Positions 26,902 to 63,708 of a DNA stretch of 64,000 bases are shown here, piece after piece. The notes beneath the pieces are model-generated. The model was not told the origin of the DNA. It did not search any database and saw only the letters and a list, made by a program, of their open reading frames with translations. Where the stretch lies: contig CM072344.1 of NCBI GenBank assembly GCA_036874045.1, positions 3,444,501 to 3,508,500 of the forward strand. Direction: 5' to 3'. Position 1 is the first letter of the stretch, and every line of letters begins with the position of its first letter. Made by a program: the position numbers and the translations under genes. The stretch is from Cymodocea nodosa (Eukaryota; Streptophyta; Magnoliopsida; Alismatales; Cymodoceaceae).

Positions 26902-26939
26902 AGTTTTCGAATGCTATTGTCGGGGATTGAGAAGTTAAG

Positions 26940-30858: not shown

Positions 30859-30916
30859 TCTATTGAGTTATGCTTAACTCAACGAACTTACTCCGTTAAG
30901 TCTAGAATAAGTTAAC

Positions 30917-35976: not shown

Positions 35977-36990
35977 TGACTGCTCTAGTAGAAAAACCAT
36001 TAGGGGAAATTCTGTATCCTGAATTAGTTGATGAACCTTCATGTATTTGATTGCCAAACTTTGAGAGAGATAGGTTTGAATTGAAATCTAATTATATTAG
36101 TCAATTGCCACACTTTCATGGATTAGAAAGAGAAGATGCCTATTATTTCCTTAGAGAATTTAACGAAGTTTGTCAAATGATGAAAATGCTGAACATGAGT
36201 ATTGATGCTATTAAACTTAGATATATTCCTTTTTCTTTAAAAGACACAACTATGAGATGGTTATATACTTTGTCACCTGATTCAATTTCTACATGGACTG
36301 AATTTTACTCTATTTTTTTGGAAAAATATTATCCAACACATCAAATGATTAAAAGGAAAAAGGAAATATTAATATGTAGCCAAAAATAGGGAGAATCATT
36401 CTGAAAATATTTTAAAAGATTTAAAGATTTACTGATTCAATGTCTGCATCGTGCAATGAGTAAAGCACAATTAATAAGTATAATTTATGAAGGCATAGAT
36501 GTTTCAACTAAATCTTTATTAGAATCTACTTGTTAGAATAGATTTTTAAAACTGTGTAGTGAAGAAGCATGGACATACTTAGAAAACTTTGCAAAAAGAA
36601 CTACACAATGGAAAAATTTAGCTAAAGCTGTTACAAATAAAAGAATATTACCAAGGAAAATGCATGAAATAGATTCAAGCACTATGCTTGAAATTAAATT
36701 AACTGAGTTAACAAAGAAAATAGAAGAGTTATCATTAAATCAAAAACTAGCAGAAAAGAATACAAATATTAATGATTTAGATATTATTTATGCTAGAAAT
36801 CAGAAAGATAACTTTGGAAATTCTTATAACCCTAATTGGAGAAATCACCCGAACCTATCTTAGAGAAATAACAATTTCCAAGGAGGAGAAAATATAAATG
36901 ACAAAAATATAAGTTATGAAGTATTAATTGAACAAGGATCTAGAATAGAAAACTTAGAAAAGATAATTCAATAATTAAACAATCATCTAG
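35977..36990 (+). pseudogene. Athila capsid gag, F-box-associated type (fossil)
   Basis: Begins MTALVEKPLGEILYPELVDE. The Retrotrans_gag-type capsid follows: YISQLPHFHGLEREDAYYFL, DAIKLRYIPFSLKDTTMRWL and STWTEFYSIFLEKYYPTHQM. It ends with the Athila 'GNSYNPNWRNHPNLS' segment. An Athila LTR (36996-39177) is inserted near its 3' end. It lies upstream of the F-box gene and downstream of the pol block. Confidence 0.8.
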
Positions 36991-36995
36991 ATCTT

Positions 36996-39536: not shown

Positions 39537-40240
39537 ATGGAATTGATGAAATTACCATTGGATGCACTAAGGGAAGTATTGAGTAACCTACCGATTAAAG
39601 ATTTGTGAAGATTGTATTGTGTGTCAAAGGAAATTAAAGAATGTGTTAGAGGAAAATATTTTAATGGACTACAGGTTGCAAAAATGACTAATATTAGAGA
39701 TTGATTTTATGAAAGTCATTTAATCATAGTTCAATTAATTATGAATATCCGAATATGGAAGAAACTATTGGAATTCCACCCAATACATTAGAAGGAATAG
39801 ATCATATAATGGGGATAGATGAAGGATTAATTATTTATAGAACCAAACCAAGGTATGCAATTCTATTACTCGATATTTTGATTAGAAATCTTATCACTAG
39901 AGAAGAACGGAATATAGGAAGGCCTAATAGATGTGAAGTATCAACTGAAAATTGTGGGTCGGCATTAATCTTTTCTGATAAAAATTCAACCATTCCTGAA
40001 AAATTGTATTACTAGAGACCAACTGGAAATTGGGATGAAAATTTATGTTTAAGTGTGTATAATTTTCTGAATAGATCATAGACTGAAAATACTAGGATAT
40101 ATCTAGGACAGAAAACATTAATTAACAACATACATGTCATACTTGATGGATATATATATCTAGTCACAGATATATCGGTTACATTTAGATCTGATTTATA
40201 CATAGTAAGCATAGAAAGCTCTTGTATGATTCAAGCTTTT
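39537..40240 (+). pseudogene. F-box gene copy 1 inside Athila derivative (fossil)
   Basis: The start MELMKLPLDALREVLSNLPI then RLYCVSKEIKECVRGKYF is a clear F-box (LP..l..iLs.LP...L.r...Vsk...). Downstream, SALIFSDKNSTIPEKLYY, RIYLGQKTLINNIHVILDGY and IYLVTD fit an F-box-associated beta domain. F-box proteins are substrate receptors of SCF (Skp1-cullin-F-box) ubiquitin ligases. The gene occupies the place of the third ORF, between gag and the polypurine tract at 40775. It is part of a virus-like element and broken; whether any copy ever made protein is unknown. Confidence 0.7.
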
Positions 40241-40790
40241 TAAAATAACTTTTAAAGTACAAATATGCATATACTGTTCCGAAAAGATAAAAGTGTTTTG
40301 TGAAATATAGATATCTTTTAAATCAAGTATATTTTCGGTTATCTAAGATTGCTGAAGTATGAATCTAGATTAGACTTTCGAAGTTGTTTATCTGATATAC
40401 AATTCATTATTCTTCTTGTTTTAATCATATTGAATTAGATTGTGTTTTGATTCATATGTAGTTGAAATTTATTCTGGAAAGCATATTGGAAAATTCAGGA
40501 TGACAGATGTTTGAAAAAAAAATGATAATATAATTACCACCTATGTGATGCTAATATATTTTGTATGTATTTTACATATGTTTTAAATATATTTGCAGGT
40601 TGAGGAGGAGAAAATAATGTTAAATTAGAATACGAAATTAATACAAAATATCTTTACATTAATCTAAGCTATGTATTCTGAAGTTACAAAATGAAGAATT
40701 AGTTCTAGTACTTTAGAAAGACACACTAGTTAGATCTTAGTAGTTTGCTAAGGGACTAGCAAAATTTAAGTATGGGGGAAGTGTTTAGAA
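40241..40790 (+). other. 3' non-coding region and polypurine tract of the inner Athila
   Basis: AT-rich, matching the minus-strand copy at 56180-56740. It ends 'aagtatgggggaag' immediately before the LTR start TGTTTAGAATG at 40791. Confidence 0.75.
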
Positions 40791-40867
40791 TGAAAAAGTG
40801 CATAATATTTACGTTTAAATGATGGTTAATTGCATAATATTTAGCTTATCATATGAGAATTACACCA

Positions 40868-42520
40868 TGTAGGATCGTATGGCTACACAAGAGGGGGGTG
40901 AATTGTAGTTTTCAATATTTTCTAAAATATAATTGAAACTTTAAATCTCAAAAACAAGTCGAGACATTGTTTTCATAAAATCATTTTTATTCAAGGTTTC
41001 AATTACAATATACAATTCAATTCTCCTCAAAAATTGTAGATGCAATTATATCTCGATACCATGTATCATCTAAATAATTTCATAACTACAAACAGAGAAA
41101 ACTAATTTGCAGAATTTAAAACATTTCTCCTTGTTTGAGATCTTTCTTCTTGTTTTTCTTCTTCAGCAATTCTTCAGTGACGAATATCTTGTCTTTCTCT
41201 GCTTCACCGAATTTGCTTTCTTCTAATACTTTAAATCTTTAGTGACATAAATAATACCTATTTCTGCTTCACTGAATTTTCTTCCACTTGAGAGATTTTC
41301 CCCGAAGAGGTGTTTTTGATCCCTGAAAAAGATTTTTCTTTTGGTGTGTAGGGATAACTCGATCCTTGAAAAGATTTTTCGTTTTGTGTGCAAGGATAAT
41401 TTGATCAACGAGAATTCTATGCCTTTTATACTATATCTTCATTTCATGCATATCCTTCACATTTAACCACTACCAGTTTTCCACTTCTTCACGTCTTTTC
41501 TTTTTCCTTCATCTAAATACACATGTTCTGACCCACGTTTACATTACGAATTTTCTTTAATCATCAGTCTTAGATCTCTGAAAAATTTCCTGCAAAATAA
41601 ACTTTCTCATCCAAAAAATTTTCCATCAAGTGTAATAAGAAGTCGTTACTTTAATGTTAACTAAACGAGTAACACAAGTATATATATATAACTTAACGTT
41701 TCTAACTTAACGAGTTCCTCATGTGCCATTTCACGTGACAAGTACTGTAGTTAACTCAACGAACTAAGTCTGTGGTGTTACGCTAACTCAACGAACCAGC
41801 TTAACCTTTCTTTCGGAAGGTTAAACGATAACTCACTGAAAACAGTTTAAGTTTCAGATAGTTACGGTTGTAAGTCTTCGAAAAACTTTAACTCACCGAT
41901 TCAGCAATAAACAAATGTTTTTATAATAAGAATTTTACCACGTGCAAAAATAACAACTTAAGTTTATAATGCTAACCTAACGCGTTGCCTTAGTGTTCAA
42001 TCTAGCAACTCAACGCGTTTAGTTATGTTAACTTAACTAGTTAAACATGTGCACCTCACGTGATACAATACAACATTCGTAACTTATAATTTCACCACGT
42101 GTATAATACTAACTTAACGAGTTCGTCTCTTCTTTTACTCACTAACTTAATGAGTTCTCACGTGACCTATTTTAACCTTTAAGCCTCTAACTTAACGAGT
42201 TCTCACGTGACCTCTATACAAACAAAACTCTAACTTAACGAGTTGTCTAAACGTGCACTGTTCATGATACAGAAGATATAACTTTAAAACATATCATGCT
42301 TTTCACTAAAAACACACGTTAACTTAACGCTTAGTTAAATGAGAAATTAATGCAACGAAATGACTAGTTATTAACTTCAGATCCAATACAGACAAGTATT
42401 TATGTCAGTAAGCCTTTTCTGTATTAATTGATGATTTTAATTTCTTTTCACAAGCAATAGTAATTGAGCAAATATGATTATTTTCATTCAGCACATATCA
42501 TCAAAACAAAATACTCAACA
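40868..42520 (-). repeat. 3' LTR of the minus-strand Sirevirus-type element
   Basis: 1653 bp; same family as the solo LTR 58822-60527. Contains G-boxes, 'aacttaacgagtt' hairpins, two 45-bp units (from 42143 and 42188) and the block shared with Athila LTRs (41939-42124). Confidence 0.85.
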
Positions 42521-43019
42521 ATCTCCCCCTTTTTGATGATGACAAAACCATATTAAATCAATTATGAAATATGTTTAACTCAACAAAGCACCTTCGTTGG
42601 GTTAACTTTTAATTCAACAAACTTGTTTGTTGACTTAAGTTCACTTAAGCTTATTTCTATTATTTGTGTAAATTTTACCTCTCAGAACTAAAACTCTCAT
42701 ATGTCAATAATTATATAAGTATCAGTTTTCTAATTATCATCTGTCAAATTACAATAACCATTTAAATATCATCTTCCTTTATAATATATGCAATTAAGAT
42801 CATAATCATCTTTTTATAATATTTCTCCCCCTTTTTGTCATTAATCGAAAAGATAATTACAGAGAATATATATATATATATAGTAAGAGATATATTTACA
42901 ACAACAATTTCTTTAAACAAGAATAATAATTGAACACATTTACAGAAAAATGTATTATTCAATGAATCAAACAAGAAATACAAACATTACATTTTGTATT
43001 CAGAAATAAACAAAAACAG
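42521..43019 (-). other. 3' non-coding region of the Sirevirus-type element, with a second polypurine-like box
   Basis: Besides the tract at the LTR (42521-42535), a second box (taatgacaaaaagggggaga on the minus strand) lies at 42822-42845. The same box occurs in the other Sirevirus-type element at about 52364-52384. A short (ta)n run is at 42867-42884. Confidence 0.65.
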
Positions 43020-45290
43020 TTATCGAGCCCTCCTAAGTATGTCACTTATAGCATTACATATTTTATCTCCTAGATGCCTAATATCATTTCTGATGTTGTT
43101 AAGCACTACATCTAAGTCATGAGGTAGCTGGGTTTGTTGTTCTACTTGAACTGAATAACTTTGTTGTTGTTGTTGTATATGGTCTGTACAATCAGGTTGT
43201 TGTTGTTGTTGTCGTTGAGGTTTATGCATGGCCTGAAATTTTTGCAAATCTTTAACACTAAATGCTCTCATGCCTTTAGTTTCAGAGGGCCAGTTGGATA
43301 AATTCAATTGGCTTGCAAGGATTCTACATACAACATCACTATAAAATAACTTTGAACTCATATGCTATAGTTGAGAAGTAAAAACATCAAACCAATTGAT
43401 TTGAATTCTATTCAACAGGCCATAAGTTGCATATAAACAACTTCTGCTAACTCCCAAATTGTGTCCAACTCTCTGAAATAAATTTACATGCAATATATTT
43501 GCAATAAACCTTGCCTCTACATTTAGATTTTCCATTAATCTCATTTTAGAATATACATCTGGAATTTTTGATAAAGACTGAATGTTCCATTTTAATTGTC
43601 TAATCATGTCAAATCTGTTTGTAACAACAACACCTTCATTCTTTAATCTCAAAACTTCAAAAATTAACTCAGGAGATAATACAAACTCCTATTGATTTAT
43701 TTGAGTTTTCAGAAAATTTCCATTCTTGAGCAAATTGCTATAAAAAGTTGCAATAAGTTTTGTGTATTGCTTCCATTTCGTTCCTACAGGCAAGAATTGA
43801 ATGAGACCTTGAAATTCAAATAGATCTCTTATTTCCATCAAATTTCTGAACTTTATTGGACGAGTATGCAGAATCTAACATGTAATCAGATTATTGTATT
43901 TCTGCAATGCTTCTTCAGATCTAAAATGAATTGAATTACCTTGAATTTGTAATACTGTACACAAAGAAGGTGATACCTGAAGCCGTGATTTAGAGTTTAA
44001 TTCATCTTCAGGAACCTATTCTTCAAAATGAATGTCATGTTGTTCCTCTTCCAAAATATTATCTTGAAGCTGCTTAGGTAAGCTTGATTCTTCAACTTCA
44101 ACAGTGTTAGGAACATCTTCAATATGCTCAACATTCATCTATTCAGTCTCTATAAAATGATCAGAGTTCAATGTTTCCATAAATTCTACAGTCGATGTAT
44201 CTGTCTATAATTATTCATTTTGTTCAACAGATATCTCCATTGATTCATGCTGTGAATTCTCAAACTTTGCTTCTATAGATTCTGTAGAAGGTTGGTTAAC
44301 TTTTAACTCTTCTAGAGTCTTAACATTTTCAATATCTGTTACTCCAAACAATTCAGCCTGTGAACTAGTTACTGCCTCAACATTGTCAATTATATCTACA
44401 ATAACTTTTTCAATGTCAAGTGCCTGATGCTCTGATTTATCAATTTCTACATCATCAGGACTTGTACTAATAGAAAAACTTGAGCTCATATTTGACTTGT
44501 ATTTCTTCTCAAGCTTTCTAGCAAGGGAAAATAAAGTCTCATTATCTTCATCAGTTTCAGTGTGTTCAGAACTGATGAGTTTATCAGATGCACAATAAGG
44601 TACAATGTCTAGACATACATTGTCCTTTGAAAATAAATTTTCATCTGATTTTCCTTTTTCAATAGACTTTGTTTCCTTAGACATAATTTTTCTGATTTTT
44701 CTTCTTCTATAACAAGTGAATCGCTCTTCTTGAAGTATTGCTGTTTTCTTTTGAAATTGTTCCATAAAAGTTTTCTGCTTTAATTCTACTAAGGCACTCT
44801 CTATTGCTACGGCCTTTCGAAGATTGTTAACTTTTATTTTGTCTACAGCAATATTTGATTCTATTTGTTTTGAATATAAAGGAGTAGGGATAGCTGATTC
44901 ATGCTCTTCCTCAAATGCATGTAGTCTAGTACCATTTATTGGTATTTGAGGAGTTCTAGTTGAAGTACCTACACCTTTTTCCAAATATTTTGCATACTAC
45001 TCGAGAAATGCAATCTCAGCACATTTCATTCTATATTCTCTATCAAATTTACTATGAATACCCATGTATGTAATATTTGCATCAGTATTTTAAAGTTCTT
45101 GTCTAACTTCATTTAGTATACCTTTAGGAAAGAAATATTCACTATAAATTTCTGTTAACCTTTTGTCCACTCAAAATATTTTCTTGAACCAAGTGCGTGG
45201 AGCTTCATCATTCTCTATTTCTTTTTCTTTTGCATCTCCTTTGCTTTTGCCTTTTCCTCTGCCACGACCTTTGTAGAACTTGGAGACCAT
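43020..45290 (-). pseudogene. Transpos_ret-like protein of the Sirevirus-type element (fossil)
   Basis: Starts MVSKFYKGRGRGKGKSKGDA, a basic Gly/Lys-rich head. A long acidic Glu/Ser-rich middle follows (44984-44211 open). The conserved region has FRNLMEIRDLFEFQGLIQFL and YTKLIATFYSNLLKNG, then MENLNVEARFIANILHVNLF. It ends with a Gln-rich tail (runs of Q near 43200 and 43160) and LDVVLNNIRNDIRHLGDKIC. It parallels 32272-34745. No catalytic motif is visible; a structural or nucleic-acid-binding role is only a guess. Confidence 0.55.
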
Positions 45291-47521
45291 CGTCGTAGGT
45301 TGTAACAGCAACTAGCGGGAAAGATTTTCTTGACAAAGTTTACAAATAACATTATCTTGAGAACAATAAGTGTAATAAGTGTTTAATAGAAGTGTTTAAC
45401 ATCTATAACATTTAGTTAAATGAAAAATTAATGCAATGAAATGACTAGTTATTAACTTCAAATCCAATACAGACAAGTATTTATGTCAGTAAGCTTTTTC
45501 TATATTAATTGATGATTTTAATTTCTTTTCACAAGCAATAGTAATTGAGCAAATATGATTATTTTCATTCAGCACACATCATCAAAAAAAAATACTCAAT
45601 ACGCCATTATGTCATAATTGCATTGTTATATGCTTTAATGAAAGAATCTACATAATTTTAGGAAATTAACATTAATTAAGTACATTTCTGAATTGTTGGT
45701 AAGTTACAGGCTTTGAAATTCTTATGTCTTCAAATTTTCTGTTATTTCGAAGAATTATATTGCATGTACTAGACAGTTATATTCTAAACGCTTAAAGAAT
45801 ATTTTATTGTTTCCTGGAGTACACGTGTTGTAACCTTAATGCATGACTTAAGTGAGTGTTCGATAAGTTATTTGTTAACTATCCAAAATGCATCTAAGCA
45901 TCGGATAGTTAAGTTTGTAAGTAATCGAAATATTTGAACTCGTTAAGTTAGAATTATGCACGTGTTGAATTTAAATGCTTTATTATGTCACGTAAGCTGC
46001 ACATGTATAACTCGTTAAGTTATCATAACTATATGTGTTTAGTTACTTGAATATACACTAAGGTAACGCGTTATATTAGTGTTATAATCTTATAAGTTAT
46101 TTCTTTATTGCACATGTTTTATAGTTAAATCAACGAAGTAAGTCCGTTGAGTTACACTAACTCTACGGACCATTTATTTTCTAATATGCCACTATAGCAA
46201 TTGCAGAAACAGGAAATTCAAAGGAAAACCACGATTGCACGTATCACGTAGGAATTCACTTATGGAATGAAGAAGAAATCACCATTGTTGATATGAATGA
46301 AGGAAATCCAACCGATCATTTAAGCAGGAGTAGTTACTATTGAAAGAAATATAAAAGAAGATGAGAAAGACGAAAAGTGTGGGTGTGTAGGAGGAGAACC
46401 ATGCTAACTACAAGAAGTGTCGGTAGTTCCTTAAAGCTCTACACCACCACCAAAACCACCAACATCACCAACCATTGGAGGTCTGTGAGGATACTTTCTA
46501 GATGTTGAGTTGATTCCGAGCGAAACACGATGACTGACAACTACTGTGGGGAGTGATCACGTCATAGGAAGGGAAGCCATTTTCACCAAGCATCGACTCA
46601 TATCTTAGGAGATCGTAAAACTTCTAGCCTTGGTTTTGGGTTGATGCCAGTATGCTGAAGAGGAGATCATCTTACAATTCTTGATTCGCGATTCTATAGG
46701 GAGAGGAGGCAAGATTGTAAGTGATTAAGTTTTCAGTGGTGTAATCGCGTCGCATGTAGTGACATAAGTTTTTACTATCGACAAAGATTTTTACATTTCA
46801 CCTTTTACTTATCTTCAAGAACATATCAAAACAAAAATACCAAAAATAACAAATTATATGTGTTTACATTTAGTATTAAAGTGTTGTATTGTTTGCTTTG
46901 TATCGTGATTAATATTATCATTGACAGTATTTTGAATGTTTTATGTTTGTTTGATTTAGAAAATAGAAAATAGTTTTATAGTTTACTAAAATTGAATTGT
47001 CCCAAATACTTAAATATTTTAATGGTTACTATTTGCAATATCTGAATGTTAGTATTGCTTAATGACAAATCTAATATTAACTAACATTAAAGAGCTTCAC
47101 TAATGTTATTTACATTCTATGGAACCACCCAATGGTTGACCGAATTCCTTTGTAAATAACATTATTTAACTGGAAAAATAGGCTCATGGAGTTAACTTAA
47201 GTCTACAAGGTTAGTCCATTGAGTAAACTATAACTCCATGAACTAAGTCCATTAGGTTAACTGTAACTCAATGGAGTGTTTTACTAAACACATATAAACT
47301 CCAATATAAAAATCAAAATAGTACACAATTCTTACTCAATCTCTATGGGATCGACCTGTACTTGTACACAGATACAATATACACTATGCACTTGTAGTTT
47401 AAAATACAAATTGGACTTCATATCTAATTTGCATGAAAGGTTGTTTATTTACTTCTAAGAGAATTTATTAATATAGGCATAAAAAAATCTAGCAAGTTTA
47501 TGATTCTTTACAACCAAGACA

Positions 47522-48167
47522 GATATCATTTATGAAACTGAGAAAACAATAATGAAAATTGACCAAAAATTGAATACAATGAGATTAGATGAGTTGGAAA
47601 GAAAGCTAAATGCACTAGATAAATTACCAATGAAATTACAAGTTATGCAAGATAAAAATGAGAACACAAGTGATAAGTTCAATGTCGAAAGTGTGTATAA
47701 TTTACAAAACACAAAGATAAAAGAAATTACCTCTGGAATAGGAATTGAGAAAGTAATCCAACTGAGAAATATATAGAAACAATTAAAAATCAAAATCACA
47801 AGAAAGAAATGGTAATACAAGAACATCATGAAAATGTTGAAAATCTAGAAGATGTTTGTGTAACATTAAGATCTAGAACTTACGTACTACTAAGAATTCA
47901 AAAAGAAAACAAAGTGGGGTAAGTAAGAACAAATTTCAAAATGAAAATGAACACGTAATACCTAAAAACTTAGAAATCAATGAAGGAAAATCTGAATCTA
48001 AAAATGAAACTGTAAATGACCAAAAGAAAGAAATGAAAGAAAACGAATCTTTTAAATAATAATCATTAGCACCTTATCCTAAAAGATTAAAACAAACATT
48101 TCCTGAAAAACAAGAAAAAATTAGAGAAATTTTTGGAAAAGTACAAGTTAACATTCCTTTGTTAGAC
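47522..48167 (+). pseudogene. Outer Athila gag tail and protease approach (fossil)
   Basis: Continues the outer element after the inner insertion: RLDELERKLNALDKLPMKLQ, then DVCVTLRSRTYV and IFGKVQVNIPLLD. It is homologous to 27380-27990. Confidence 0.7.
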
Positions 48168-49623
48168 AGCTCAGCAAAAGATCAGAAGACAGATAAATAG
48201 ATACAGATAGTTCAGAAATTGCTACTATAGAACTACAGGAAAATCGGACAGTTCTAGGCTTATGTATCCAGAAGAAAGTTAATCTTTGGTGAGTTATAGG
48301 CTTAAGTATTTGAAGAGTAAAAGCAGCAGAAACACTGTCGAACAGTTAGAAGAATAACTATTCGAAATTACAAGGCCTACGGAGAGTTGTGAAAGATAGT
48401 TGGTTGAATGATCAAAGAGTTAAGGAGTTAACTATCCGAAAGCTCAAGGAAAATCAGAAAGTTAGAAAGGCAAACTATCCAAAACTTAAGTCATTCAATT
48501 ACTCACGTGCAAAAATCCAAAACCGAAGCTTAAAGGAGTTTTCGGAGAGTTAGAAAGCTAACTATCCGAAAAATAGGAAGATTCGGAAGGTTATAGACTT
48601 AACTATCCGAAACTTAAGTTATCCTATTATGCACGTGTAGAATTAAGAAGACAACAGTCGGAAACTTAAAGGAAAATTGGAGAGTTACTGTAGCTAACCA
48701 TCCGAAAGTCAAGAGAGTTTCAGTGAGTTACAGTTATAACCATCCGAACGTAAGACTCATCACGTGTATGACTTAAATCTCACGTGACAAAAGAACTTAA
48801 GTGGGTTTTCGGTAAGTTACGATCATCCTTTAGAAAGTTACATAGATAACTATTCTAAAGTTTGAGTGAATCAAAAGGTTATCTTGAAACACCTTTCTAA
48901 ACGGTAACTTACCATATTTGGATCTATAAACTCAGCAAGTACAGTAGAATAAATCCATTGAAGAGAAAATATGATCGTTGGACATTCAAGCATAAATACA
49001 GACAGATCATTCAATATTCAGTAGAATTGAGAAGTGAGATTACAGATATAATTACATACAGAGATACAGTATACATTGTAGATCAATTACTGATATAGAA
49101 GAAAGCTCAATTCAGTTTAACAAGGAATCGATTGAAAGCTAAATTTACGAGAAGATTCTCAAAGCTCTCCAAGTGCTGAAAGTTTGATCCAAGAAAGATC
49201 ATTTGGTTCGTAGCTTCTACCTTAAAGCTTCATTCAAGTGGTTGGTTTGAGTTTCAACTTGAAAACTCAAAAGGTTGGTTTACTGAAGTTTATACCTAAA
49301 AACTTCTGTGTGGTTGGTTAGAGCTATGACCAGAAAGCTCAAGTGAATGGTTGGTTCCTGCTTCGACCTGAAAGCAAGTGTATGTAAGTGTTGAAACACT
49401 TAGTGAAGCCCAAGTGATCCTTGGGGGTGGACTTGCCAAGTTGGTGAACCACTTAAAATTCCCTTGTGTTTCTTACTTTTATTTCTGTTGTACATGTTTA
49501 TTTATATTTGTTTAGTACTTGTGCTAGCTATTTATTAAAATTGGATTATCAAGTTAAAAATAGTTTTAAAGTATACATAGATCACATTCATCCCCCCTCT
49601 GGTGAAGCCATACGTTCCTAATA
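48168..49623 (+). repeat. 5' LTR of the gag-only Sirevirus-type element
   Basis: Aligns with the right LTR from 'agctca.caaaagatc' to 'cgttccta'. It contains several 'gagagtta...taactatccgaaa' hairpins and CACGTG boxes. The U5-like end has 'tcccccctctggtgaagcc'. Confidence 0.85.
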
Positions 49624-49677
49624 ATTGGTATCAGAGTAGGTTGATCTCTTTTTATACATTTAACCATCTAAGATCAT

Positions 49678-52643: not shown

Positions 52644-54171
52644 TGTTAGGACCCTAGTATTTTGATAATGCAAAAACCTATGTGAGGAAACAAATTGTAT
52701 TTCACAGTTATGATAGCTCACCAAAAGATCAAAAGGCAGATAAACAGATACAGGTAGTTCAGAAATTGCTGCTATAGAGCTACAAGAAAATCGGACAGTT
52801 CTAGGCTTATGTATCCAGAAGAAAGTTAATCTTTAGTGAGTTACAGGCTTAAGTATCCGAAGAGTAAAAGAAGTAGAAACACTATCAAACAGTTATAAGA
52901 ATAACTATCCGAAATTACAAGGCATTTGGAGAGTTGTGAAAGATAGTTGGTTGAATGATCGGAGAGTTAAGGAGTTAACTATTCGAAAGCTCAAGGAAAA
53001 TCGAAAAGTTAGAAAGGCTAACTATTCGAAACTTAAGTCATTCAATTACCCACGTGCAAAAATTCAAAACAGAAGCTTAAAGGAGTTTTCGGAGAGTTAG
53101 AAAGCTAACTATCCGAAAAACAGGAAGATTTAGAAGGTTACAGACTTAACTATCCGAAACATAAGTTATCCTATTATGCACGTGCAAAATTAAGAAGACA
53201 GTAGTCGAAAGCTTAAAGGAAAATCGGAGAGTTACTATAGCTAACCATCCGAAAGTCAAGAGAGTTTCGGTGAATTACAGTTATAACCATCCGAACGTAA
53301 GACTCATCACGTGTATGACTTAAATCTCACATGACAAAAGAACTTAAGTGGGTTTTCGGTGAGTTATGATCATCCTTCGGAAAGATACATAGATAACTAT
53401 CCGAAAGTTTGAGTGAATCGAAAGGTTATCTTGAAACACCTTTCCAAACAGTAACTTACCATATTTGGATCTGTAAACTCAACAAGTACAGCAGAATAAA
53501 TCCGTTGAGGAGAAAATATGATCATTGGACGTTCAAGCATAAATACAGACAAATCATTCAATATTCAGTAGAGTTTAGAAGTGAGATTATAGATACAATT
53601 ACATATAGAGATACAATATACATTGTAGATCAATTACTGATATAGAAGAAAGCTCAATTCAGTTTAACAAGGAATCGATTGAAAGCTAAATTTAGGAGAA
53701 GATTTTCAAAGCTCTCCAAGTGTTGAAAGTCTGATCCAAGAAGCATGATTTGGTTCGTAACTTCTACCTTAAAGCTTCATTCAAGTGGTTGGTTTGAGTT
53801 TCGACCTGAAAACTCAAAAGGTTGGTTTACTGAAGTTTATACCTGAAAACTTCTGTGTAGTTGGTTAGAGCTACGACTAGAAAGCTCAAGTGAATGGTTG
53901 GTTCTTACTTCGACTTGAAAGCAAGTGTATGTAAGTGTTGAAACACTTAGTGAAGCCCAAGTGATCCTTGGGGCTAGACTAGCCAAGTTGGTGAACCACC
54001 TAAAATTTCCTTATGTTTCTTACTTTTATTTTCGCTGTGTATGTTTATTTATATTTGTTTAGTACTTGTGCTAGCTGTTTATTAAAATTGGATTATCAAG
54101 TTAAAAATAGTTTTAAAGTACACATAGGTTACAATTCACCCCCCCTCTAGTGAAGCCATACGTTCCTAACA
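52644..54171 (+). repeat. 3' LTR of the gag-only Sirevirus-type element
   Basis: 1528 bp, TGTTAGGACCC to CGTTCCTAACA. The inner 78-codon frame at 53409-53645 is LTR sequence, not a gene. Confidence 0.9.
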
Positions 54172-55141
54172 AACCATTGTGAGGAGTGATCGCGTCGTGG
54201 GAAGGGAAGCCATTTTCACCAAGCACCGACTCATATCTTAAGAGATCATAAAGCTTCTAGCCTTGGTTTCGGGTTGATGCTAGTATGCTGAAGAGGAGAT
54301 CATCTTGCAATTTTGGACTCATGATTCTATAAGGAGTGGAGGCAAGATTGTAAGTGATTAAGTTTTCAATGGTGTAATCACGTCAAATGTAGTGACGAAA
54401 GCATTTACTGTCGATAGAGATTTTTACATTTCATCTTTCATTCATCTTTAGGAACATATCAAAACAAAAATACCAAAAACAACAAATTATCTGTGTTTAC
54501 GTTTAGTATTAAAGTATTGTATTGTTTGTTTTGTATCATGAGTAATGTTATCATTGTCAGTATTGTGAATGTGTTATGTTTGTTTGATTTAGAAAATAGA
54601 AAATATTTTTATAGTTTACTGAAATTGATTCGTTCCAGATAATTAAAGATTTTAATGGTTACTGTTTGAAATATCTGAAAGTTAGTAGTGTTTAATGATA
54701 AATCTAATATTAACTAACATTAAAGAGCTTAATTGATGTTATTTACAATCTATGGAACTACCCAATGGTTGGCCGAATTCCTCTATAATTAACAATATTT
54801 AACTAGAAAAATTAAGCTCGTGGAGTTAACTTAAGTCCACAAGGTTAGTTCGTTGAGTTAGCCATAACTCCATCAACTAAGTTCATTGTGTTAACTATAA
54901 CTCAATGGAGTGCTTACTTAACACATTTATACTCCAATATAAAAATCGAAACAGTACACAATTCTTACTCAATCTCTGTGGGATCGACTTGTACTTGCAC
55001 AAAAATACAATATACACTGTGCACTTGCAGTTAAAAATACAAATTGGAATTAATATCTAATTGTTTGGAAGGTTGTTTGTTTACTTCTAAAAGAAATTAC
55101 TGATATAAGCAAGTTTAAGATTTAACATTTCACACCAAACA
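54172..55141 (+). repeat. 3' half of an Athila LTR
   Basis: Starts inside the LTR at 'gtgaggagtgatcgcgtcg' and continues to the LTR end 'caccaaaca'. It may be the end of the outer Athila, but that link is inferred from orientation only. Confidence 0.75.
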
Positions 55142-56176
55142 ATGCTTGGTGAAAATGGCTTCCCTTCCCACGATGCAACCACTCCTCACAGTGGTTGTCA
55201 GTCATCGTGTTTGACTCAGAATCAACCCAACATCAAGAAAGTATCCTCATAGACCTCCGATGGTTGGTGATTTTGGTGGTGGTGTGGAGCTTCAGGGAAC
55301 TTCCGACGCTTCTTGCAGTTAGCGCAGTTCTCCACCTCTACACACACACTTTCTTCATCTTCTTCCTCTTCTTTTATATTTCTTTTTGTAGCAACTACTT
55401 CTACTTAGATGATTGGTTGGATTTCCTTCATTCATATCAACGATGGTGATTTCTACTTCAGTCACAAATGAATTACTGTGTGATACGTGCAATTGTAGTT
55501 TTCCTTTGAATTTCCTATTTCTATAACTGCTACAGTGGCATATTAGAAAATAAATGGTCAGTGGAGTTACAAATAACTCAATGGACTTACTTCGTTGATT
55601 AACTATAAAACATGTGTAATAAAAAAATAACTTATAAGCTTATAACACTAACATAACACGTTACCTTAATGTATATTCAAGTAACTCAACGTGTATAGTT
55701 ATACTAACTTAACGAGTTAAACATGTGCACCTCACGTGATATACTAAAGCATTCAAATTCAACATGTGCATAATTTTAACTTAACGAGTTTAGATATACA
55801 ACTTATGATTTTTACTCACTAACTCAACGAGTTGTTACTTGTACTTTTCACACATTTAAGCCTTTAACTCAATGAGTTGTTACTATGTACCTAAATATTC
55901 TATTAGCGTTTAAAATATAACTATCTAGTACATGCAATATAACTCTTCGAAATAATATAAAATTTAGAGACATAAGAATTTCAAAGCTTGAAACTTACCA
56001 ACAGTTCAGAAATATACTAAATTAACGCTAATTCCTTGAATTTATGCAAATTCCTTCATTAAAGCATATAATAATGTAATTATAACATAATGACTTAATT
56101 CTCATATGGTAAGCTAAATATTATGCAAATAACCATCATTTATTTGTTAATATTATGCACTTTTTCCTTCTAAACA
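55142..56176 (-). repeat. 5' part of an Athila LTR, minus strand
   Basis: Reads from TGTTTAGAAGG (56176) to about 'ccattttcaccaagca' (55144). A polypurine tract (taatggggaag) lies at 56177-56187. The plus-strand frame 55195-55449 is LTR antisense. Confidence 0.8.
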
Positions 56177-58026
56177 CTTCCCCATTACTTAAATTTTGCT
56201 AGTCCCTTAGCAAACTAAGATCTAACTAGTTGGTCTTTCTAAAGTTGGTAGAATTAATTTTTCATTTTGTATATTCAGAATACATAAATTAGATTACTAT
56301 ATAGATATTCTGTATTAATTTAGTAATCTATTTCAACATTGTTTTCTCCTCTTCAACCTGCAAATATATTTAAAACATATATAAATTACATACAAAATAT
56401 ATTAGCATCACATAGGTGGTAATTATATTATCATTTTTTTCTTCTATTCAACATCTGTTATCCTGATTTTTCTAATATGATTTCCAGAATAAATTTCAAC
56501 TACATAAGAATCAAAACACAATCCAATTCAATATGATTAAAACAAGAAGAATAATGAATTGTATCTCAAATAAACAACTTCAAAAGTCTATTCTAGATTC
56601 ATACTTCAATAATCTTAGATAATAGAAAATATACTCGATTCAAAAGATATCTGTATTTCACAAAACACTTTTACCTTTTCAGAACAATATATGCATATTT
56701 GTACTTTAAAAGTTAATTTGAAAAGTTTGAATCATACAAGAGCTCTCTAGTGTACCCATGTATCAAGCTTTCAGTTAACAATCCTAGATCTGATCAGGAT
56801 CTTAGGTTGCTAGATTTAAAGAGTCCTATTTTAGGTCAACAATCTTTACATACCTATTTACTCAAGTACAAAAGGCTTATGATCAAAAAAGTCAATAAAC
56901 TCTCAAAGTTTTTCTTTTTTTTTTCTTTTTTTCTTTTGAACACAGTATATATACGTATTTCATTAATATAGATGCAATAAAACACCAATCTCTTATAGTT
57001 CTACTTCTATTATTTCCTGAAAATATGAATCTATATCAATAAGCTCATGCTTTTTCTATAGTTTAATAAGATTTACACATAAATCATTCTACAAGTTTAA
57101 TCAATCAAATTAAATGTATCTTTGATCCTATGTATTTCATTTAATCCAAAAATCAACATTTCAGCTCTTTCAGGATTTCAAATAATTTACTAAGTTTCAA
57201 TTAAGCATTCTGATTTCTTTTTAAAATTGTGAAACTGTTAAATTCATAAAATTCAGCAAAAACATAAGATACTATATCTAGATTTGTATTAATAGTAAAA
57301 TTTTGTAGCATCTTATATAAGATTCTAAATATAACATTCAAGCAGTTACAATTCTTAAAAATTTGACAATCTCAATTATCGGATAGTTATAGCAAATTCA
57401 TAAAAAAAATTTTCAATTTTCACAGAATTTTTGCAACACCATTCTAATTCCTTTAATTAACAAAATTACTTGGTTTTTAATCTAATTACCTCCCCCATAC
57501 TTACATTTTGCATTGTCCTCAATGTAGAAGATTTTATAGTAAATATAGTAATTGTTAGTAGGCATGAATATTGTTTCGTTGATTTACACCTAACTCAACG
57601 AACTTAATTCATTGAGTTAATGAATAACTCTACGAATTGAGTTTAAATGTAAATTCAGGATAAGTAATTAAGTACATACCTTGTTCTTTTGTCTCTCCTT
57701 TAATATCTTTTGACTTTTGATTCTAAAAAACTTTTCAATCATGAGTAAAAGCATAATATATAACAAAATAACAAAACATAAATTGTTAAATTAGTGTCTT
57801 GTGTGGAACCTAGGCTCTAATGCTTTTGGTGGCTCACAAGCAAGTCAGTTGGTTTCCCAAAACAAATATCAATAAACTGGATTGATATTTTGTTTTTCTT
57901 TTTTTCTTCTTTTTTTTATAAAATAAAACAAAAACTAAAAAAATTTCTTCCTTTTCTAAAAATAAATACAGATTACACAACATTAAAAGTACAGAATCAT
58001 AAGTTAAGAACATGATTGAAAGGTAG
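56177..58026 (-). other. 3' non-coding region of the F-box Athila derivative
   Basis: AT-rich. 56180-56740 matches 40240-40790 in reverse. 56930-57160 matches 63770-64000 in the same plus orientation. No coding frame is supported; the 73-codon frame at 56750-56971 looks spurious. Confidence 0.55.
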
Positions 58027-58821
58027 TCACAAATGGAATAAACGTATCAGTTCAAGCAAACTTTTAGGCATAATTCTTTTTACTATTAATTCTATTTTAA
58101 TGTAGTCTGCTTTCCTTTTTAACTTGTAAACTTGCAGTATGTTATCAATACTAAATATAAGTATATTTCCATTAATGAAATGAAATGCAGAAAGGGATCT
58201 TTTTCTGTTCCAAGATAATGTAATTGTTTCTATTTCTACATATATTTCAATATATTCCTCTTCCCACTTCCATTCATTTAGGTCTTTCATAATCCATATT
58301 TGAAATTTCATCAATTCATCTCACCATCTTATCAGACATAAAGTAAGATCATCATATTCATTATACCACATTCCTAATTGAATTTTATCATATTTTGCAG
58401 GCGATGGTTTAACTATATCACTTAGTATAGGCAATATTTCTATAAAGTCATCATCATAACTATCTATGCACACAATGTATAAATCAGATCTATATGCTTA
58501 CAATGTATAAAGCAGATCTAAATGCAATTGATATATCTGACACTAAATATATATATCCATCAAGTATGACATGTATGTTGTTAATTAATGCTTTCTTTCC
58601 TAGATATATCCTAGTATTTTTAGTCCAAGATCTATTCAAAAAATTATACACACTTAAGCATAAATCCTCATCCCAATTTCCAGTTGGTCTTTAATAATAC
58701 ATTTTTTAAGGAATGGTTGAATTTTTATCAGAAAAGATTAATGCTGACCCACAATTTTTTGTTGGTACTTCAAATCTATTAGGCCTTCCTATATTCTATT
58801 CTTTTCTAATGATAGGATTTT

Positions 58822-60527
58822 TGTAGAATCGTATGGCTACACAAGAGGGGGGTGAATTGTGTTTTTCAACATTTTCGATTATAATTGAAACTTCAAAACT
58901 CAAAAACAAGTCGAGACACTGTTTTCATAAAATCATTTTTATTCAAGGTTTCAATTACAATATACAATTCAATTCTCCTCAGAAATTGTAGATGCAATTA
59001 TATATCGATACCATCTTTCATCTATACAATTTCATAACTACAAACAGAGAAAACTAATTTATGGAATTTAAAACATTTCTCCCTATTTGAGATCTTTCTT
59101 CTTCTTCTCTTTCTTCTTCAGCAATTCTTTAGTGACGAATATCTAGTCTTCCTATGCTTCATCAAATTTACTTTCTCCTAGTACTTCAAATCTTCAATGA
59201 CATAAATCTTACCTTTTTCTGCTTCACTGAATTTTCTTCCATCTGAGAGCTCTTCCCTGAAGAATATTTTTGATCCCTAAAAGGAATTTTCGTTTGGTGT
59301 GCAGGGATAACTAATCAACGAGAATTCTATGCCTTTTATACTGTATCTTCATTTCATGCATACCCTCCATGTTTAATCACTATTAGTCTTCCACTTCTTC
59401 ATGTCTTTTCTTTTTCCATCATCGAAATACACACGTTTTGACCCACATTTACATTTCGAATTTTCTTTAATCATCAATCCTAGATCTCTAAAAAATTTCC
59501 TGCAAAATAAACTTTATTGTCCAAAATCTTTCATAAAGTATAATAAGAAGTCGTTACTTTAATGTTAACTAAACAAATAAAACAAGTAGATATGTAACTT
59601 AACGTTTCTAACTTAATGAGTTCCTCATGTGCCAACTCATGTGATAAGTATTGTAGCTAACTCAACGAACTAAGTCTGTGGTGTTACAATAACTCAACGA
59701 ACCAGCTTAAACTTTCTTTCGAAAGGTTAAATGCTAACTCAACGAAAATAGTTTAAGTTTCGGATAGTTATCGCTATAAGTCTCTGAAAAACTTTAACTC
59801 ACTGATTCAACAATAAACAAATGTTTTTATAATAAGAATTTTACTACGTGCAAAAATAATAACTTAAGTTTTATAACGCTAACCTAACGTGTTGCCTTAG
59901 TGTTCAATATAGCAACTCAACGCGTTTAGTTATGTTAACTTAACGAGTTAAACATGTGCACCTCATGTGATACAATATAACATTCGTAACTTTTAATTTC
60001 ATCACATGTACAACACTAACTTAACAAGTTCGTCTCTTCTTTTACTAACTAACTTAACGAGTTCTCACGTGTCCTATTTTAAGCTTTAAGCCTCTAACTT
60101 AACGAGTTCTCACATGACCTATTTTAATCTTTAAGCCTCTAACTTAACGAGTTCTCACGTGACCTATTTTAACCTTTACGCCTCTAACTTAATGAGTTCT
60201 CACGTGACCTCTATAACAATAACACTCTAACTTAATGAGTTGTCTAAACGTGCACTGTTCATGATACAGAAGATATAACTTTAAAACATATCATGCTTTT
60301 CAATAAAAACACACGTTAACTTAACGTTTAGTTAAATGAGAAATTACAGCAACGAAACGACTAGTTATTAACTTAGTATAATTTTAGATTCAATACAGAC
60401 AAGTATTTATATCAGTAAACTTTTTCTGTATTAATTGATGTACTTAATTTCCTTTCACAAGCAATAGTAATTGAGCAAATATGATTACTTTCATTCAGCA
60501 CACATCATCAAAAAAAAATACTCAACA
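58822..60527 (-). mobile_element. Sirevirus-type solo LTR (1706 bp) inside F-box copy 2
   Basis: Reads on the plus strand from TGTAGAATCGTATGGC to AATACTCAACA, flanked by 'atttt' (58817-58821) and 'atttc' (60528-60532). Same family as 40868-42520. Confidence 0.85.
60050..60240. repeat. 45-bp tandem repeat inside solo LTR
   Basis: Units start at 60050, 60095, 60140 and 60185, each 'taacttaacgagttctcacg' plus a pyrimidine-rich tail. The related LTR at 40868 has two units (42143, 42188). Each unit has a G-box (CACGTG) or a one-base variant, and the half-palindrome aacttaacgagtt. Confidence 0.85.
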
Positions 60528-60881
60528 ATTTCTAATCAAAATATCGGGTAACAGAATTGTATACCTTGGTTTGATTCTGAAAATAATTAATCCTTCATCT
60601 ATCCCCATAATATGATCTATTCCTTCTAATGTATTGGGTGGAATTCCAGTAGTTTCTTCCATATTCAAATATTCATAGCTGATTTAACTACGATTAAATA
60701 ACTTCCATAAAAATTCATCTCTAATCTTAGTCATTTTTGCAACTTGTAGTCCATGAAAATATTTTTCTCTAACATAGTCTTTAATTTCTTTTCATACACA
60801 ACACAATCTGCACAAATCTTCAACTGATAATTTACTCAGTACTTCCCTCAGTGCATCTAGTGGTAATTTCATCAATTCCAT

Positions 60882-61775
60882 CTGTTGTAATTTTGTATAA
60901 CATAAACAAAAATTTAATAGAGATAAAATCAACATAGCTACTTACTTACCCTCGTGGAGTTGGGTCATAACTCAACGGACTAAGTTCGTTTAGTTAAGTA
61001 ATAACTCTACGATACTACTAACTATAATAAAACTTAAATTTTTTTCTTTTCATATTTTTCTACTTACTATATTATACATAGTTACTTTAGTTATACTGCT
61101 TCATTCAGCTTCCCTCTCATAGGAGGTATTAATTTCATTAACAGTTTTGTTGACAGGGTTAGGTATTGCTTGCATTGGCAATCCTCCAGTAGGTCTAACT
61201 TCTATTGATTCCTTCTATCTAGGGGGTATACTTCTATTTCTATTTATATTGAATGACAGTGTTTCCAAATACAAGATCTAGACGATTGTTTAATTGTTGA
61301 ATTATCTTTTCTAACTTCTCTATTCTAGATCATTATTCAATTAATGCTTTATAACTTATATTCTTATGATTTATATTTTCTCCTCCCTGGAAGTTGTTAT
61401 TTCTCCAAGATAGGTTCAAGTGATTTCTCCAATTAGGGTTATAAGAATTTCCAAAGTTGTCTTTCTGGTTTCTTGCATAAATAATATCTAAATCATTAAT
61501 GTTTGCATTATTTTCTACTAGCTTTTGATTTAATGATAACTCTTCTATTTTCCTTGTTAATTCAGTTAATTTAACTTCAAGCATAGTACTTGAATCTATT
61601 TCATGCATTACCCTTAGCAATATTCTTTTATTTGTAATAGCTTCAACCAAGCTTTCCCATTATGTAGTTCTTTTTGCAAAGTTTTCTAAATATGCCCATG
61701 CTTCTTCACTACACAGTTTTAAAAATCCATTCTTATAAGAAGATTTTAATAAAGATTTCGTTGAAACATCTATGT
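60882..61775 (-). pseudogene. Gag end and spacer of the minus-strand Athila derivative (fossil)
   Basis: Gag is at about 61775-61130 (MHEIDSSTMLEVKLTELTRK, IEELSLNQKL, NFGNSYNPNWRNHLNLSWRN). A spacer then leads to the F-box start, with a 'gttgagtta'-type hairpin and a donor-like 'gggtaagtaag' near 60945. It is homologous to 36480-36990 plus 39183-39536. Confidence 0.75.
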
Positions 61776-62672
61776 TGTTTAGAATGAAAAAGTGCATATT
61801 ATTAACGGTTAAATAATGGTTAATTACATAATATTTAGCTTATCATATGAGAATTAAGCCATTATGTTATAATTACACTGTTATATGCTTTAATTGAAGA
61901 ATCTGCTTAATTTTGGGGAATTAATGTTAATTTAGTACATTTATGAACGGTCGGTAAGTTGCAGGCTGTGAAATTATTAAGTATCCAAATTTTCTGATAT
62001 TTCGGATAGTTATGTTTAAATTACCGAACAGTTATATTTAGAGAGAATATTTTATTATTTCCAGATGTACACGTGTCGAAACCAGAATGAATGTCTTAAG
62101 TGAATTTTCGGCGAGTTAGCTGTAACTATCTGAAAATGCATCTGAGCATCGGATAGTTAGACCTGTAACTCTCCGAAATGTTATTTTTAAATTGCTACTG
62201 ACATGTGTCGAGAGCTGGTAGATTTACTTAAGTTATAACTTGTTAAGTTAGCATAACTATACGTGTTGAGTTACATGAATATACACTAAGGTAACGCATT
62301 AGGTTTGCGACTTATTTCTTTATTGCATGTATTTTATAGTTATTTTCTAAAATGCCACTATAGCGGTTGCAGGAACAAACAGTTGGAAGGAAAAACCACG
62401 TCTGCACGTATCACGCAGGAATTCAATCGCAGAGGGAGAAAGAAATCATCGCCATTGATCTGAAGGAAGGAAATCCAACCGATCATTTAAGCAAAAGCAG
62501 TTACTATTGAAAAAATATAAAAGAAAAGAAGAAAAAAAGAAGAAAGTGTGATCGATGGACGGCCCGTGTATACAGAGGAGGAGCACCGAGCTTTCTACAG
62601 ATAGTATCGGCGATACTCCAAAGTATCACACCAACCATCGTATCACCACCATAATCACCAATCATCGGAGGT
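61776..62672 (+). repeat. 5' part of an Athila LTR joined to F-box copy 3
   Basis: Starts TGTTTAGAATGAAAAAG and follows the LTR to 'atcatcggaggtttgta', where it passes directly into F-box sequence. It includes the 'tatttcggatagtta' and 'gcatcggatagtta' hairpin arms. Confidence 0.75.
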
Positions 62673-63708
62673 TTGTATTGAAGAAAAATATTTTCAGGGA
62701 CTACAAGCTGCAAAAATGACTAAGATTAGAGATGGATTCATATGGAGGTCATTTAATTGTAGTTCAAATACCCATGAATATTTGGCTATGGAAGAAACTA
62801 CTGGAATTCCACCCAATGCATTAGAAGGAAAGAGTCATATTATGGGGATAGATGAATGATTAATCATATACAAGACTAGACCAAGGTATGCAAGTTTATC
62901 ATTACCTGATATTTTGACAAGAAATCCTATAACAGGAGAAGAATGGAATATAGGAAGACCTAATATATTTGAAGCACCAACTGTAAATTGTGGGTGAACT
63001 TTAATATTTTCTGATAAAAATTCTGCAGTTCCTGAAAAATTATATTATTGGAGACCTATAGGAAATTGGGGTGAAGATTTACGCTTAAGTGAGTAAAATT
63101 TTCTGAACAGATCTTGGAATGAAAACATTATAATATATCTAGGACAGAAATCATTAATTAACCAAACACATGTCATTCTTGATGGATATATCTATTTAGT
63201 CACGGAGATATCATTAGCATATGGATCTGATTTATACATAGTGAGCATAGATAGTTATGATGATTATATAGAAATTTTACCTATACCGAGTGAAATAGCT
63301 AAACCACCATTTGCAGAATTTAATGAAATTCAAATAGGAATGTGGTATAATGAAGAAGATGATTCTACTTTATGTCTGATAAGATGGTGGGATGAACTGA
63401 TGAAATTTCAAATATGGATTATGGAAGACATGAATGAATGGAAGTGGGAAGAGGAGTATATTGAAATAGATGTAGAAATAGAAACTGCTACATTACCCTG
63501 GAACCAAAAAGGATCCCTTTCTGCATTACATATCATTAATGGTAATACACTCGTATTTGGAATTTATAATATATTGCATGTTTACAAATTAAAAAGGAAC
63601 AAGAACTGCATTAAAATAGAATTAATAGCAAGAAGAACTATGCCTAAAAAGCTTGCTTGGACTGATACATTTATTCCATTTGTTTCTACTTTTCAGTCAT
63701 GTTCTTAA
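62673..63708 (+). pseudogene. F-box gene copy 3 (fossil, best-kept C-terminal half)
   Basis: Begins within the gene after the F-box proper (EKYFQGLQAAKMTKIRDGFI) and runs to the C-terminus. The last 155 codons (63241-63708) are open: IVSIDSYDDYIEILPIPSE region, GMWYNEEDDSTLCLIRWWDE, FQIWIMEDMNEWKWEEEYIE, LVFGIYNILHVYKLKR. These are beta-strand repeats of an F-box-associated domain. Upstream, RPIGNWGEDLRLSE and LGQKSLINQTHVILDGYIYL match copy 1. Good preservation of the domain text relative to the surrounding LTR sequence is notable. Confidence 0.75.

What the first reader, a model, noticed from the sequence alone, without database searches (positions are those of the whole stretch)
39537..63708. 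An F-box gene occupies the third-ORF position of Athila-type elements, in three copies
Three copies (39537-40240 plus, 60881-58027 minus, 62673-63708 plus) encode an F-box followed by an F-box-associated domain. In two of them the gene sits between an Athila capsid gag and the polypurine tract/LTR, where Athila elements usually have an env-like ORF. The repeated presence and the shared flanks mean it travelled with the element rather than being hit by it. Seen: motifs and positions. Known: F-box proteins are receptors of SCF ubiquitin ligases, and plant poleroviruses use an F-box protein (P0) against Argonaute. Inferred: a retroelement captured a host F-box gene, perhaps to act on host silencing.
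Basis: partly seen in the sequence, partly recalled or inferred. Interest (0 to 1): 0.9.

Follow-up and report, generated by a model that had tools for sequence, protein, structure and literature searches.

The report
Plant retrotransposon carrying an F-box gene
An abundant family of jumping genes in this plant genome carries its own gene for an F-box protein (the kind of adaptor cells use to mark chosen proteins for destruction), and the pattern of changes in that gene suggests it was kept working while the family spread, rather than being accidental cargo.

Summary
The window lies in an unnamed 374.6-Mb plant genome. The three copies are real, broken copies of a 379-codon F-box gene. Pfam F-box is significant in copies 1 and 2; copy 3 has lost the motif; the claimed F-box-associated domain reaches no Pfam significance. 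Genome-wide the gene belongs to an Athila-like LTR family. Of 20 loci fetched by F-box match, 19 have the LTR start downstream, 17 at 1,749-1,820 bp. Three insertions have 5-bp target duplications. In one 12.5-kb insertion the gene is the last ORF after integrase. Of 39 sampled copies, 11 have an open full-length frame. dN/dS is 0.36-0.42 between the older window copies and the open ones, against 0.37 for the element's capsid, 0.30 for RT and about 0.8 within the young subfamily: the protein evolved under purifying selection while moving. Unexpectedly, capsid is absent between LTR and NC (9 of 9 junctions); in copies with integrase, capsid, where present, lies after it, before the F-box gene. 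No donor or homologue was found; target and function are untested. Most likely the element acquired a host-type F-box gene that recruits the host SCF ligase against a host or competing protein.

The parts
24896..26901 (+). 5' LTR of element E1, which holds copy 1; target duplication GATAT at 24891-24895
   Evidence: TG...CA ends; 91-92% identical to the 3' LTR in the two long parts compared; GATAT repeated after 47521; uninterrupted site seen in E1's own internal homologue
26902..27499 (+). Primer-binding-site region and degenerate zinc-knuckle (NC) part of gag (NC by recalled motif, no Pfam hit); no capsid here
   Evidence: six-frame reading; tblastn; same LTR-NC junction in other copies; no Pfam zinc-knuckle hit
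28007..28396 (+). Aspartic protease
   Evidence: Asp_protease_2 E 0.0025, below its cut-off
28908..30191 (+). Reverse transcriptase and RNase H (broken by stops)
   Evidence: RVT_1 E 2.7e-10, RT_RNaseH E 1.7e-29
30195..30863 (+). Integrase, broken off at 30863
   Evidence: Integrase_H2C2 E 5.2e-6; rve weak, E 0.19
34712..35890 (+). Leader region ('lead') before capsid; found upstream of the F-box gene in 20 of 20 genomic loci
35892..36992 (+). Capsid gag (broken), downstream of pol
   Evidence: Retrotrans_gag E 6.7e-6; open homologue in L014 E 4.4e-19
36997..39175 (+). Solo LTR inserted late in the gag region; target duplication ATCTT; empty site in copy 2
39537..40227 (+). F-box gene copy 1 (stops, one frameshift, 3' part deleted)
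   Evidence: Pfam F-box; alignments
40228..40781 (+). 3' region and polypurine tract (40762-40781) before the 3' LTR
   Evidence: PPT pattern, 0 expected by chance; 91% identical to copy 2
40782..47521 (+). 3' LTR of E1 (40782-40868 and 45600-47521), interrupted by a 4.7-kb insertion at 40869-45599
61263..61774 (-). gag C-terminal part of copy 2
   Evidence: 90% identical to copy 1
58007..60881 (-). F-box gene copy 2, split by a solo Copia-like LTR at 58822-60527
   Evidence: Pfam F-box
55143..56196 (-). Polypurine tract (56177-56196) and start of the 3' LTR of copy 2
61776..62676 (+). Truncated LTR of the element holding copy 3, abutting copy 2's gag
62677..63708 (+). F-box gene copy 3 without the F-box motif (3 in-frame stops)

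Best explanation
This is an abundant Athila-like LTR retrotransposon family that has a complete, uninterrupted 379-codon F-box gene as its last ORF, between integrase/capsid and the polypurine tract. SHOWN: the gene lies inside LTR- and target-duplication-bounded insertions; it recurs at many loci; 11 of 39 sampled copies have an open frame; and between older and younger copies its protein changed under purifying selection, about as strong as on the element's capsid and RT and weaker than on its RNase H and gag C-part. INFERRED: the protein binds host SKP1 through its F-box and uses its divergent C-terminal region to bring a target to the SCF ubiquitin ligase. Because selection acted while the gene moved, the target is one whose removal helps the element: a silencing or restriction factor of the host, or the gag of a competing element. 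Which target is unknown. SKP1 binding is more likely than not from the motif; a silencing target is a guess.
For: Pfam F-box E 8.7e-11 to 1.1e-8 in four of the open copies. Same order, lead - (capsid) - F-box - 3' region - LTR: of 20 loci on 15 contigs, lead in 20, capsid in 16, 3' region in 19, LTR start in 19, F-box stop to LTR 1,749-1,820 bp in 17 of 19; a polypurine tract directly before the LTR start in 16 of 20. Target duplications: GATAT (E1), GTGAG (L013), CATAG (L032/L027). 3,856 and 4,233 first-look candidates with two F-box probes; only the best 40 of each were scored, all 97-100% identical. 11 of 39 copies open. dN/dS 0.36 (copy 1) and 0.42 (copy 2) against 11 open copies; 0 of 1000 neutral simulations at or below 0.40 and 0.45; about 0.8 among young copies. 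Comparators 0.37 and 0.17 (two gag parts), 0.30 (RT), 0.19 (RNase H). Single-copy variants fit neutrality closely: synonymous 27 seen, 28.4 expected.
Against: No expression, SKP1-binding or target data exist here. The C-terminal region matches no Pfam family, none of 3,870 candidate proteins at E<=1, and solved structures only at chance level. Inside the young subfamily, variants shared by 3 or more copies show only a weak synonymous excess (17 seen, 11.8 expected, p 0.07; against single variants p 0.09, or 0.13 without stops), so current selection is not shown. A codon-position test on the three window copies was not significant (p 0.07), and the first neutral model gave only p 0.007-0.03. 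The loci and the 39 copies were taken from the 40 best F-box matches, so neither the share of family members that carry the gene nor the share of open copies in the whole family is known.
Confidence: 0.6

Rival explanations
1. Passenger: the F-box gene was transduced once and has been copied along as inert sequence.
For: Gene capture by plant LTR elements is common (PMC3726574 and PMC13317346, passages read). 28 of 39 copies are broken and dN/dS within the young subfamily is about 0.8.
Against: dN/dS 0.36-0.42 between older and young copies, with 0 of 1000 neutral simulations as low, and close to capsid and RT. Broken copies and near-neutral change after insertion are expected for any element gene.
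Confidence: 0.15
2. Self- or competitor-directed: the F-box protein degrades the gag or pol of its own or rival elements (copy-number control or competition), not a host defence factor.
For: The gene sits beside a capsid gene; in some loci capsid is deleted while the F-box gene stays (L011, L015, L027), and pol-less copies have it.
Against: No direct evidence; loci were chosen by F-box match, so retention after loss of other genes is biased.
Confidence: 0.2
3. Env-like role: the ORF replaces the Athila env-like ORF in place only and does something unrelated to SCF.
For: Same place as the Athila sense-strand extra ORF (PMC7264820, passages).
Against: A significant F-box motif in window copies 1 and 2 and in the four young copies scanned.
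Confidence: 0.08
4. Host F-box genes that happen to lie beside retroelements, multiplied by segmental duplication.
For: Three copies lie within 25 kb of the window.
Against: Near-constant F-box-to-LTR spacing at loci on 15 contigs, three target duplications, an empty site for E1, and the LTR of copy 3's element abutting the broken gag of copy 2.
Confidence: 0.01

Closest known systems
Athila-lineage Ty3/Gypsy elements with a 3' sense extra ORF (env-like, Athila ORF-1/Transposase_32)
   Same: Ty3 pol with integrase following RNase H, TGGCGCC primer-binding site (Athila type by recall), GGGGGA-type polypurine tract, long LTRs, a sense ORF between pol and 3' LTR (papers PMC7264820, PMC6317226, PMC11728184, passages read)
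   Different: The extra ORF is an F-box gene. In copies with integrase, capsid, where present, lies downstream of it. A Transposase_32-like ORF was seen only in E1, L010 and L012, with a sub-threshold Pfam score (E 0.043 in E1, no such hit in L012).
Orchid Ty3/Gypsy elements with an AlkB-type m6A demethylase ORF (PMC9289625, section 12 read)
   Same: A conserved host-type domain acquired as an extra ORF in a lineage of large Gypsy elements
   Different: Different domain. That screen of 121 angiosperm genomes names extra domains in the section read, and F-box is not among them; the word is absent from the main text. It was anchored on RT, so pol-less copies would be missed; its supplementary chart was not seen.
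Bs1 and other LTR elements with transduced genes (PMC13317346, PMC3726574, passages)
   Same: Host-type gene inside LTR borders
   Different: Here one complete gene is shared by a large family and shows purifying selection between older and young copies.
Polerovirus P0 (F-box-like silencing suppressor) and the host F-box protein FBW2, both acting on AGO1 (PMC6593998, PMC9035678, PMC2914764; search listing with abstract starts)
   Same: F-box or F-box-like motif in a selfish element (P0); a plant F-box protein with a silencing target (FBW2)
   Different: No sequence relation beyond the motif was tested; the target here is unknown.

Membership tests
F-box proteins (PF00646) | F-box domain above the curated score | tested here: met
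   four open copies 35.1-41.7 bits against 20.5; copies 1 and 2 as they stand 21.3 and 27.8 bits; copy 3 lacks the motif
F-box proteins (PF00646) | Binding to SKP1 in an SCF complex | not testable with these tools
   needs a binding assay
F-box-associated (FBA_1/FBA_3) proteins | FBA domain above the curated score | tested here: not met
   FBA_3 8.2 bits against 20.7, 7.2 bits on the read-through; no FBA hit at E<=1 in four open copies; AlphaFold model unusable, pLDDT 31.6
LTR retrotransposon | Two LTRs, primer-binding site, polypurine tract, 5-bp target duplication | tested here: met
   L013 has all four with an exact TGGCGCC; E1 and L032/L027 have degenerate primer sites
Ty3/Gypsy, Athila lineage | RT-RNase H-integrase order without the extra RNase H of Tat | tested here: met
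   L019 ORF: RVT_1, RNase H, Integrase_H2C2, rve in that order, no RNase H hit between RNase H and integrase; criterion from PMC6317226 (passage)
Ty3/Gypsy, Athila lineage | Placement inside Athila in an RT tree | not tested
   no tree built; Athila is otherwise recalled from gag, pol and primer-site motifs
Ty3/Gypsy, Athila lineage | Canonical gene order with capsid gag before pol | tested here: not met
   no room for capsid between LTR and NC in 9 of 9 junctions seen; capsid after integrase or its remnant in L009, L014, L019, L026 and E1. Pol-less copies do have lead-capsid next after the LTR.
Transduced host gene | Identifiable host donor gene | tested here: inconclusive
   no homologue at E<=0.01 (517 candidates) or E<=1 (3,870 candidates); genome-wide F-box listing has 4,219 candidates, 150 scored, none fetched
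Silencing suppressor of P0 type | Suppression of RNA silencing | not testable with these tools
   needs a plant or cell assay

The most novel reading that the evidence does not exclude
A plant retrotransposon lineage has reorganised its genome: the capsid is parted from NC-pol and sits in a 3' module with an acquired F-box gene, by relocation or by fusion of two elements. The F-box protein recruits the host SCF ligase to destroy a host defence factor. That would make it a retrotransposon-encoded, selection-maintained counter-defence of the F-box kind, carried at very many loci of one genome.
Probability: 0.25. Interest if true: 0.95.

Novelty: new variant of a known kind. Interest (0 to 1): 0.82.

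Why it matters
Extra ORFs of plant LTR elements mostly have no known function (PMC7264820, passages). Here one carries a domain with a well-understood partner (SKP1), is open in 11 of 39 sampled copies, and shows the selection expected of an element gene. That makes a long-open question, what the third ORF does, directly testable by ordinary binding assays. Such copies might also be counted as host F-box genes by annotators (inference). The listings of my literature searches and the passages I opened showed no report of an F-box ORF as a family-wide part of a plant LTR element; I did not open most listed papers, and most subscription papers are outside that library.

Tried and rejected
Internal promoter before capsid: a TATAAATA at 35.6 kb in the window suggested it, but the motif was found at that place in none of the 20 genomic loci, so I dropped it. 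A diverged 5' LTR at 34.7-35.9 kb was dropped: 46% identity to the LTR end; it is the 'lead' region found in 20 of 20 loci. The idea that gag plus F-box is always a separate pol-less element was dropped when loci with integrase upstream appeared. Structure of copy 3: pLDDT 31.6, unusable. Viral contigs and plasmids: no relatives. FBA_3 genome search: nothing, in the control genomes too, so uninformative. A count of F-box presence downstream of RT copies, not biased by F-box choice, could not be fetched. Comparing the printed lists by eye instead, 4 of 40 RT places have a listed F-box place within 7 kb downstream on the same strand, one being the query's own locus; the F-box lists are partial, so this is no estimate of the share of carriers. 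A pattern count of the gene was asked for repeatedly and never answered.
Full report
What the window shows. The three places encode parts of one gene. Copy 1 (39537-40227, plus) and copy 2 (60881-58007, minus) begin with a Pfam F-box. Copy 3 (62677-63708, plus) lacks the first 36 codons; LTR sequence runs straight into codon 37. All are broken.

Context of copy 1. The F-box gene is followed by a 3' region, the tract AAATTTAAGTATGGGGGAAG and the LTR start TGTTTAGAATG. The partner LTR lies at 24896-26901. In the two long parts compared, the two LTRs are 91-92% identical and closest to each other among the LTRs compared; in the first 85 bp the 3' LTR is as close to the solo LTR. The pair is flanked by GATAT, and the uninterrupted site is visible in E1's own internal sequence. 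E1 lies inside an older relative, E0 (LTR 22520-24437). Between E1's LTRs, and interrupted by later insertions, lie an NC-like piece, protease, RT, RNase H, broken integrase, capsid gag and the F-box gene. A solo LTR (36997-39175, ATCTT) sits between gag and F-box; copy 2 shows the empty site.

Copies 2 and 3. Copy 2 has the same gag-F-box-PPT-LTR order on the other strand, with a solo Copia-like LTR inside the gene. The LTR of copy 3's element abuts the broken gag of copy 2, which suggests that it inserted there; its other end lies outside the window, so no target duplication could be checked. Gag, spacer, F-box gene and 3' region of copies 1 and 2 are all 88-91% identical: they diverged as one unit.

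The genome. The genome search placed the window in a 374.6-Mb unnamed assembly of 28 contigs; that it is a plant follows from the retroelements and from the named RT relatives. The last 609 bp of the F-box gene gave 3,856 first-look candidates and the full gene 4,233; the best 40 of each were scored and were 97-100% identical. These are candidate counts, not a copy number. An RT probe of the family gave 4,212 (40 scored). A Pfam F-box scan gave 4,219 candidates, of which 150 were scored, all 150 over the cut-off.

Structure in 20 loci (L009-L028, on 15 contigs, taken from the 40 best F-box matches). The lead region precedes the F-box gene in 20 of 20, capsid (whole or part) in 16, the 3' region follows in 19 and the LTR start in 19. 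The distance from F-box stop to LTR is 1,749-1,820 bp in 17 of 19 (the others 950 and 3,659). L019 has no LTR in range on that strand. A polypurine tract stands directly before the LTR start in 16 of 20; the start pattern missed the other four. RT or integrase lies upstream in 6 of 20 by tblastn; one search adds an integrase remnant in L014. L013 is an 8.9-kb insertion with both LTRs and no pol match, flanked by GTGAG, with a TGGCGCC primer site. L032 plus L027, neighbouring stretches, hold a 12.5-kb insertion flanked by CATAG with LTR, NC, protease, RT, RNase H, integrase, lead, F-box gene, PPT and LTR; capsid is missing there and the F-box frame has three stops.

Capsid position. At every LTR-to-NC junction seen, 9 of 9, there is no room for capsid: NC starts 158-198 bp after the end of the LTR match in seven (L014, L023, L024, L030, L031, two in L032) and about 60-70 bp after the LTR end in E0 and E1. 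Where capsid occurs together with integrase it lies after it: L009, L014, L019, L026 and E1. The upstream stretch of L019 adds its own LTR, NC and protease. Against a simple 'relocation': in pol-less copies (for example L016, L021, L025) lead and capsid come next after the LTR, so the arrangement with pol could also have arisen by fusing a capsid-F-box element to an NC-pol element. The capsid ORF in L014 scores Retrotrans_gag E 4.4e-19. One literature search on gene order listed nothing of this kind, which is thin.

Selection. 11 of 39 copies (20 plus 19) keep a full-length frame of 378-379 codons. Window copies 1 and 2 against these 11 give dN/dS 0.36 (range 0.33-0.40) and 0.42 (0.39-0.50). 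Neutral simulations average about 1.0, with 0 of 1000 at or below 0.40 and 0.45 respectively (1 in 1000 at or below 0.50). Among open copies the ratio is 0.83 (55 pairs), among 24 broken ones 0.78 (276 pairs; copies with larger gaps left out). The same comparison for E1's own genes gives 0.37 (capsid part, 13 copies), 0.17 (gag C-part, 13), 0.30 (RT, 4) and 0.19 (RNase H, 5). Weaker results: three window copies alone, p 0.007-0.03 with a milder null; codon-position test p 0.07; shared against single variants p 0.09, 0.13 without stops, and 0.07 against expectation. Single variants fit neutrality closely (27 synonymous, 28.4 expected; 13 stops, 11.7 expected). I conclude that selection acted between older and younger copies, while the gene was moving, and that sampled copies decay after insertion.

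Origin and function. No protein matched: none of 517 candidates at E<=0.01 and none of 3,870 at E<=1. The same collection gave 7,998 RT relatives, and those named in the 120 listed are from plants. The C-terminal part is therefore far from any sampled F-box protein. A host donor is assumed from the domain alone. The SCF-adaptor role is inferred from the motif. A silencing target is only an analogy with P0 and FBW2 (search listing and abstract starts).

Age. LTR pairs are 93.6-96.1% identical over 630-2,016 bp in nine loci (two shorter overlaps, 353 and 379 bp at 98.3 and 95.8%, left out) and 91.7% for E1's second LTR part; with recalled plant rates this is a few million years.

Literature. Section 12 of PMC9289625 was read whole. 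Passages only: PMC7264820, PMC11963269, PMC11728184, PMC6317226, PMC3726574, PMC13317346, PMC8764390, PMC3852528, PMC13359793. PMC8764390 mentions one LTR-gene in the F-box family of Thlaspi arvense, so single captures of F-box genes are not new.

Verdict. The mechanism remains inferred.

Noticed in passing
10994-11695 (minus): ORF with an EXPERA (EBP/TMEM97-like) domain, Pfam E 4.3e-8, G+C 0.50 against about 0.31 for the element parts measured; probably a host gene or retrocopy.
   Followed up: no
40869-45599 and 58822-60527: A Copia-like element (type by recall; ORF of 261 aa at 44211-44996, minus) inserted in E1's 3' LTR, and a solo LTR of the same family in copy 2.
   Followed up: partly
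48161-54172: Copia element with 92% identical LTRs and a Retrotran_gag_2 ORF at 49889-51025; its two flanks (E0 linker and an LTR interior) do not look contiguous in any element seen, so an earlier rearrangement is likely.
   Followed up: partly
57489-57508 (minus): A second PPT-like tract followed by 58%-identical LTR-like sequence between copy 2's F-box gene and its 3' LTR; possibly an older LTR boundary.
   Followed up: no
33944-34171; L010 and L012: ORF with weak Transposase_32 similarity (E 0.043) upstream of the lead region, with relatives in L010 and L012; may be the usual Athila extra ORF still present in one sublineage.
   Followed up: partly
L011, L015, L027: Capsid missing, with the lead joined to the F-box gene at about the same lead position (1063-1064) in each, which suggests a heritable capsid-less sublineage.
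   Followed up: no
L031: F-box gene, LTR and NC of the next unit in direct succession, a tandem arrangement sharing one LTR.
   Followed up: no
genome-wide Pfam F-box scan: 4,219 F-box candidates, 150 scored; the listed hits include open frames of up to 452 aa that could be host genes or further element subfamilies.
   Followed up: no
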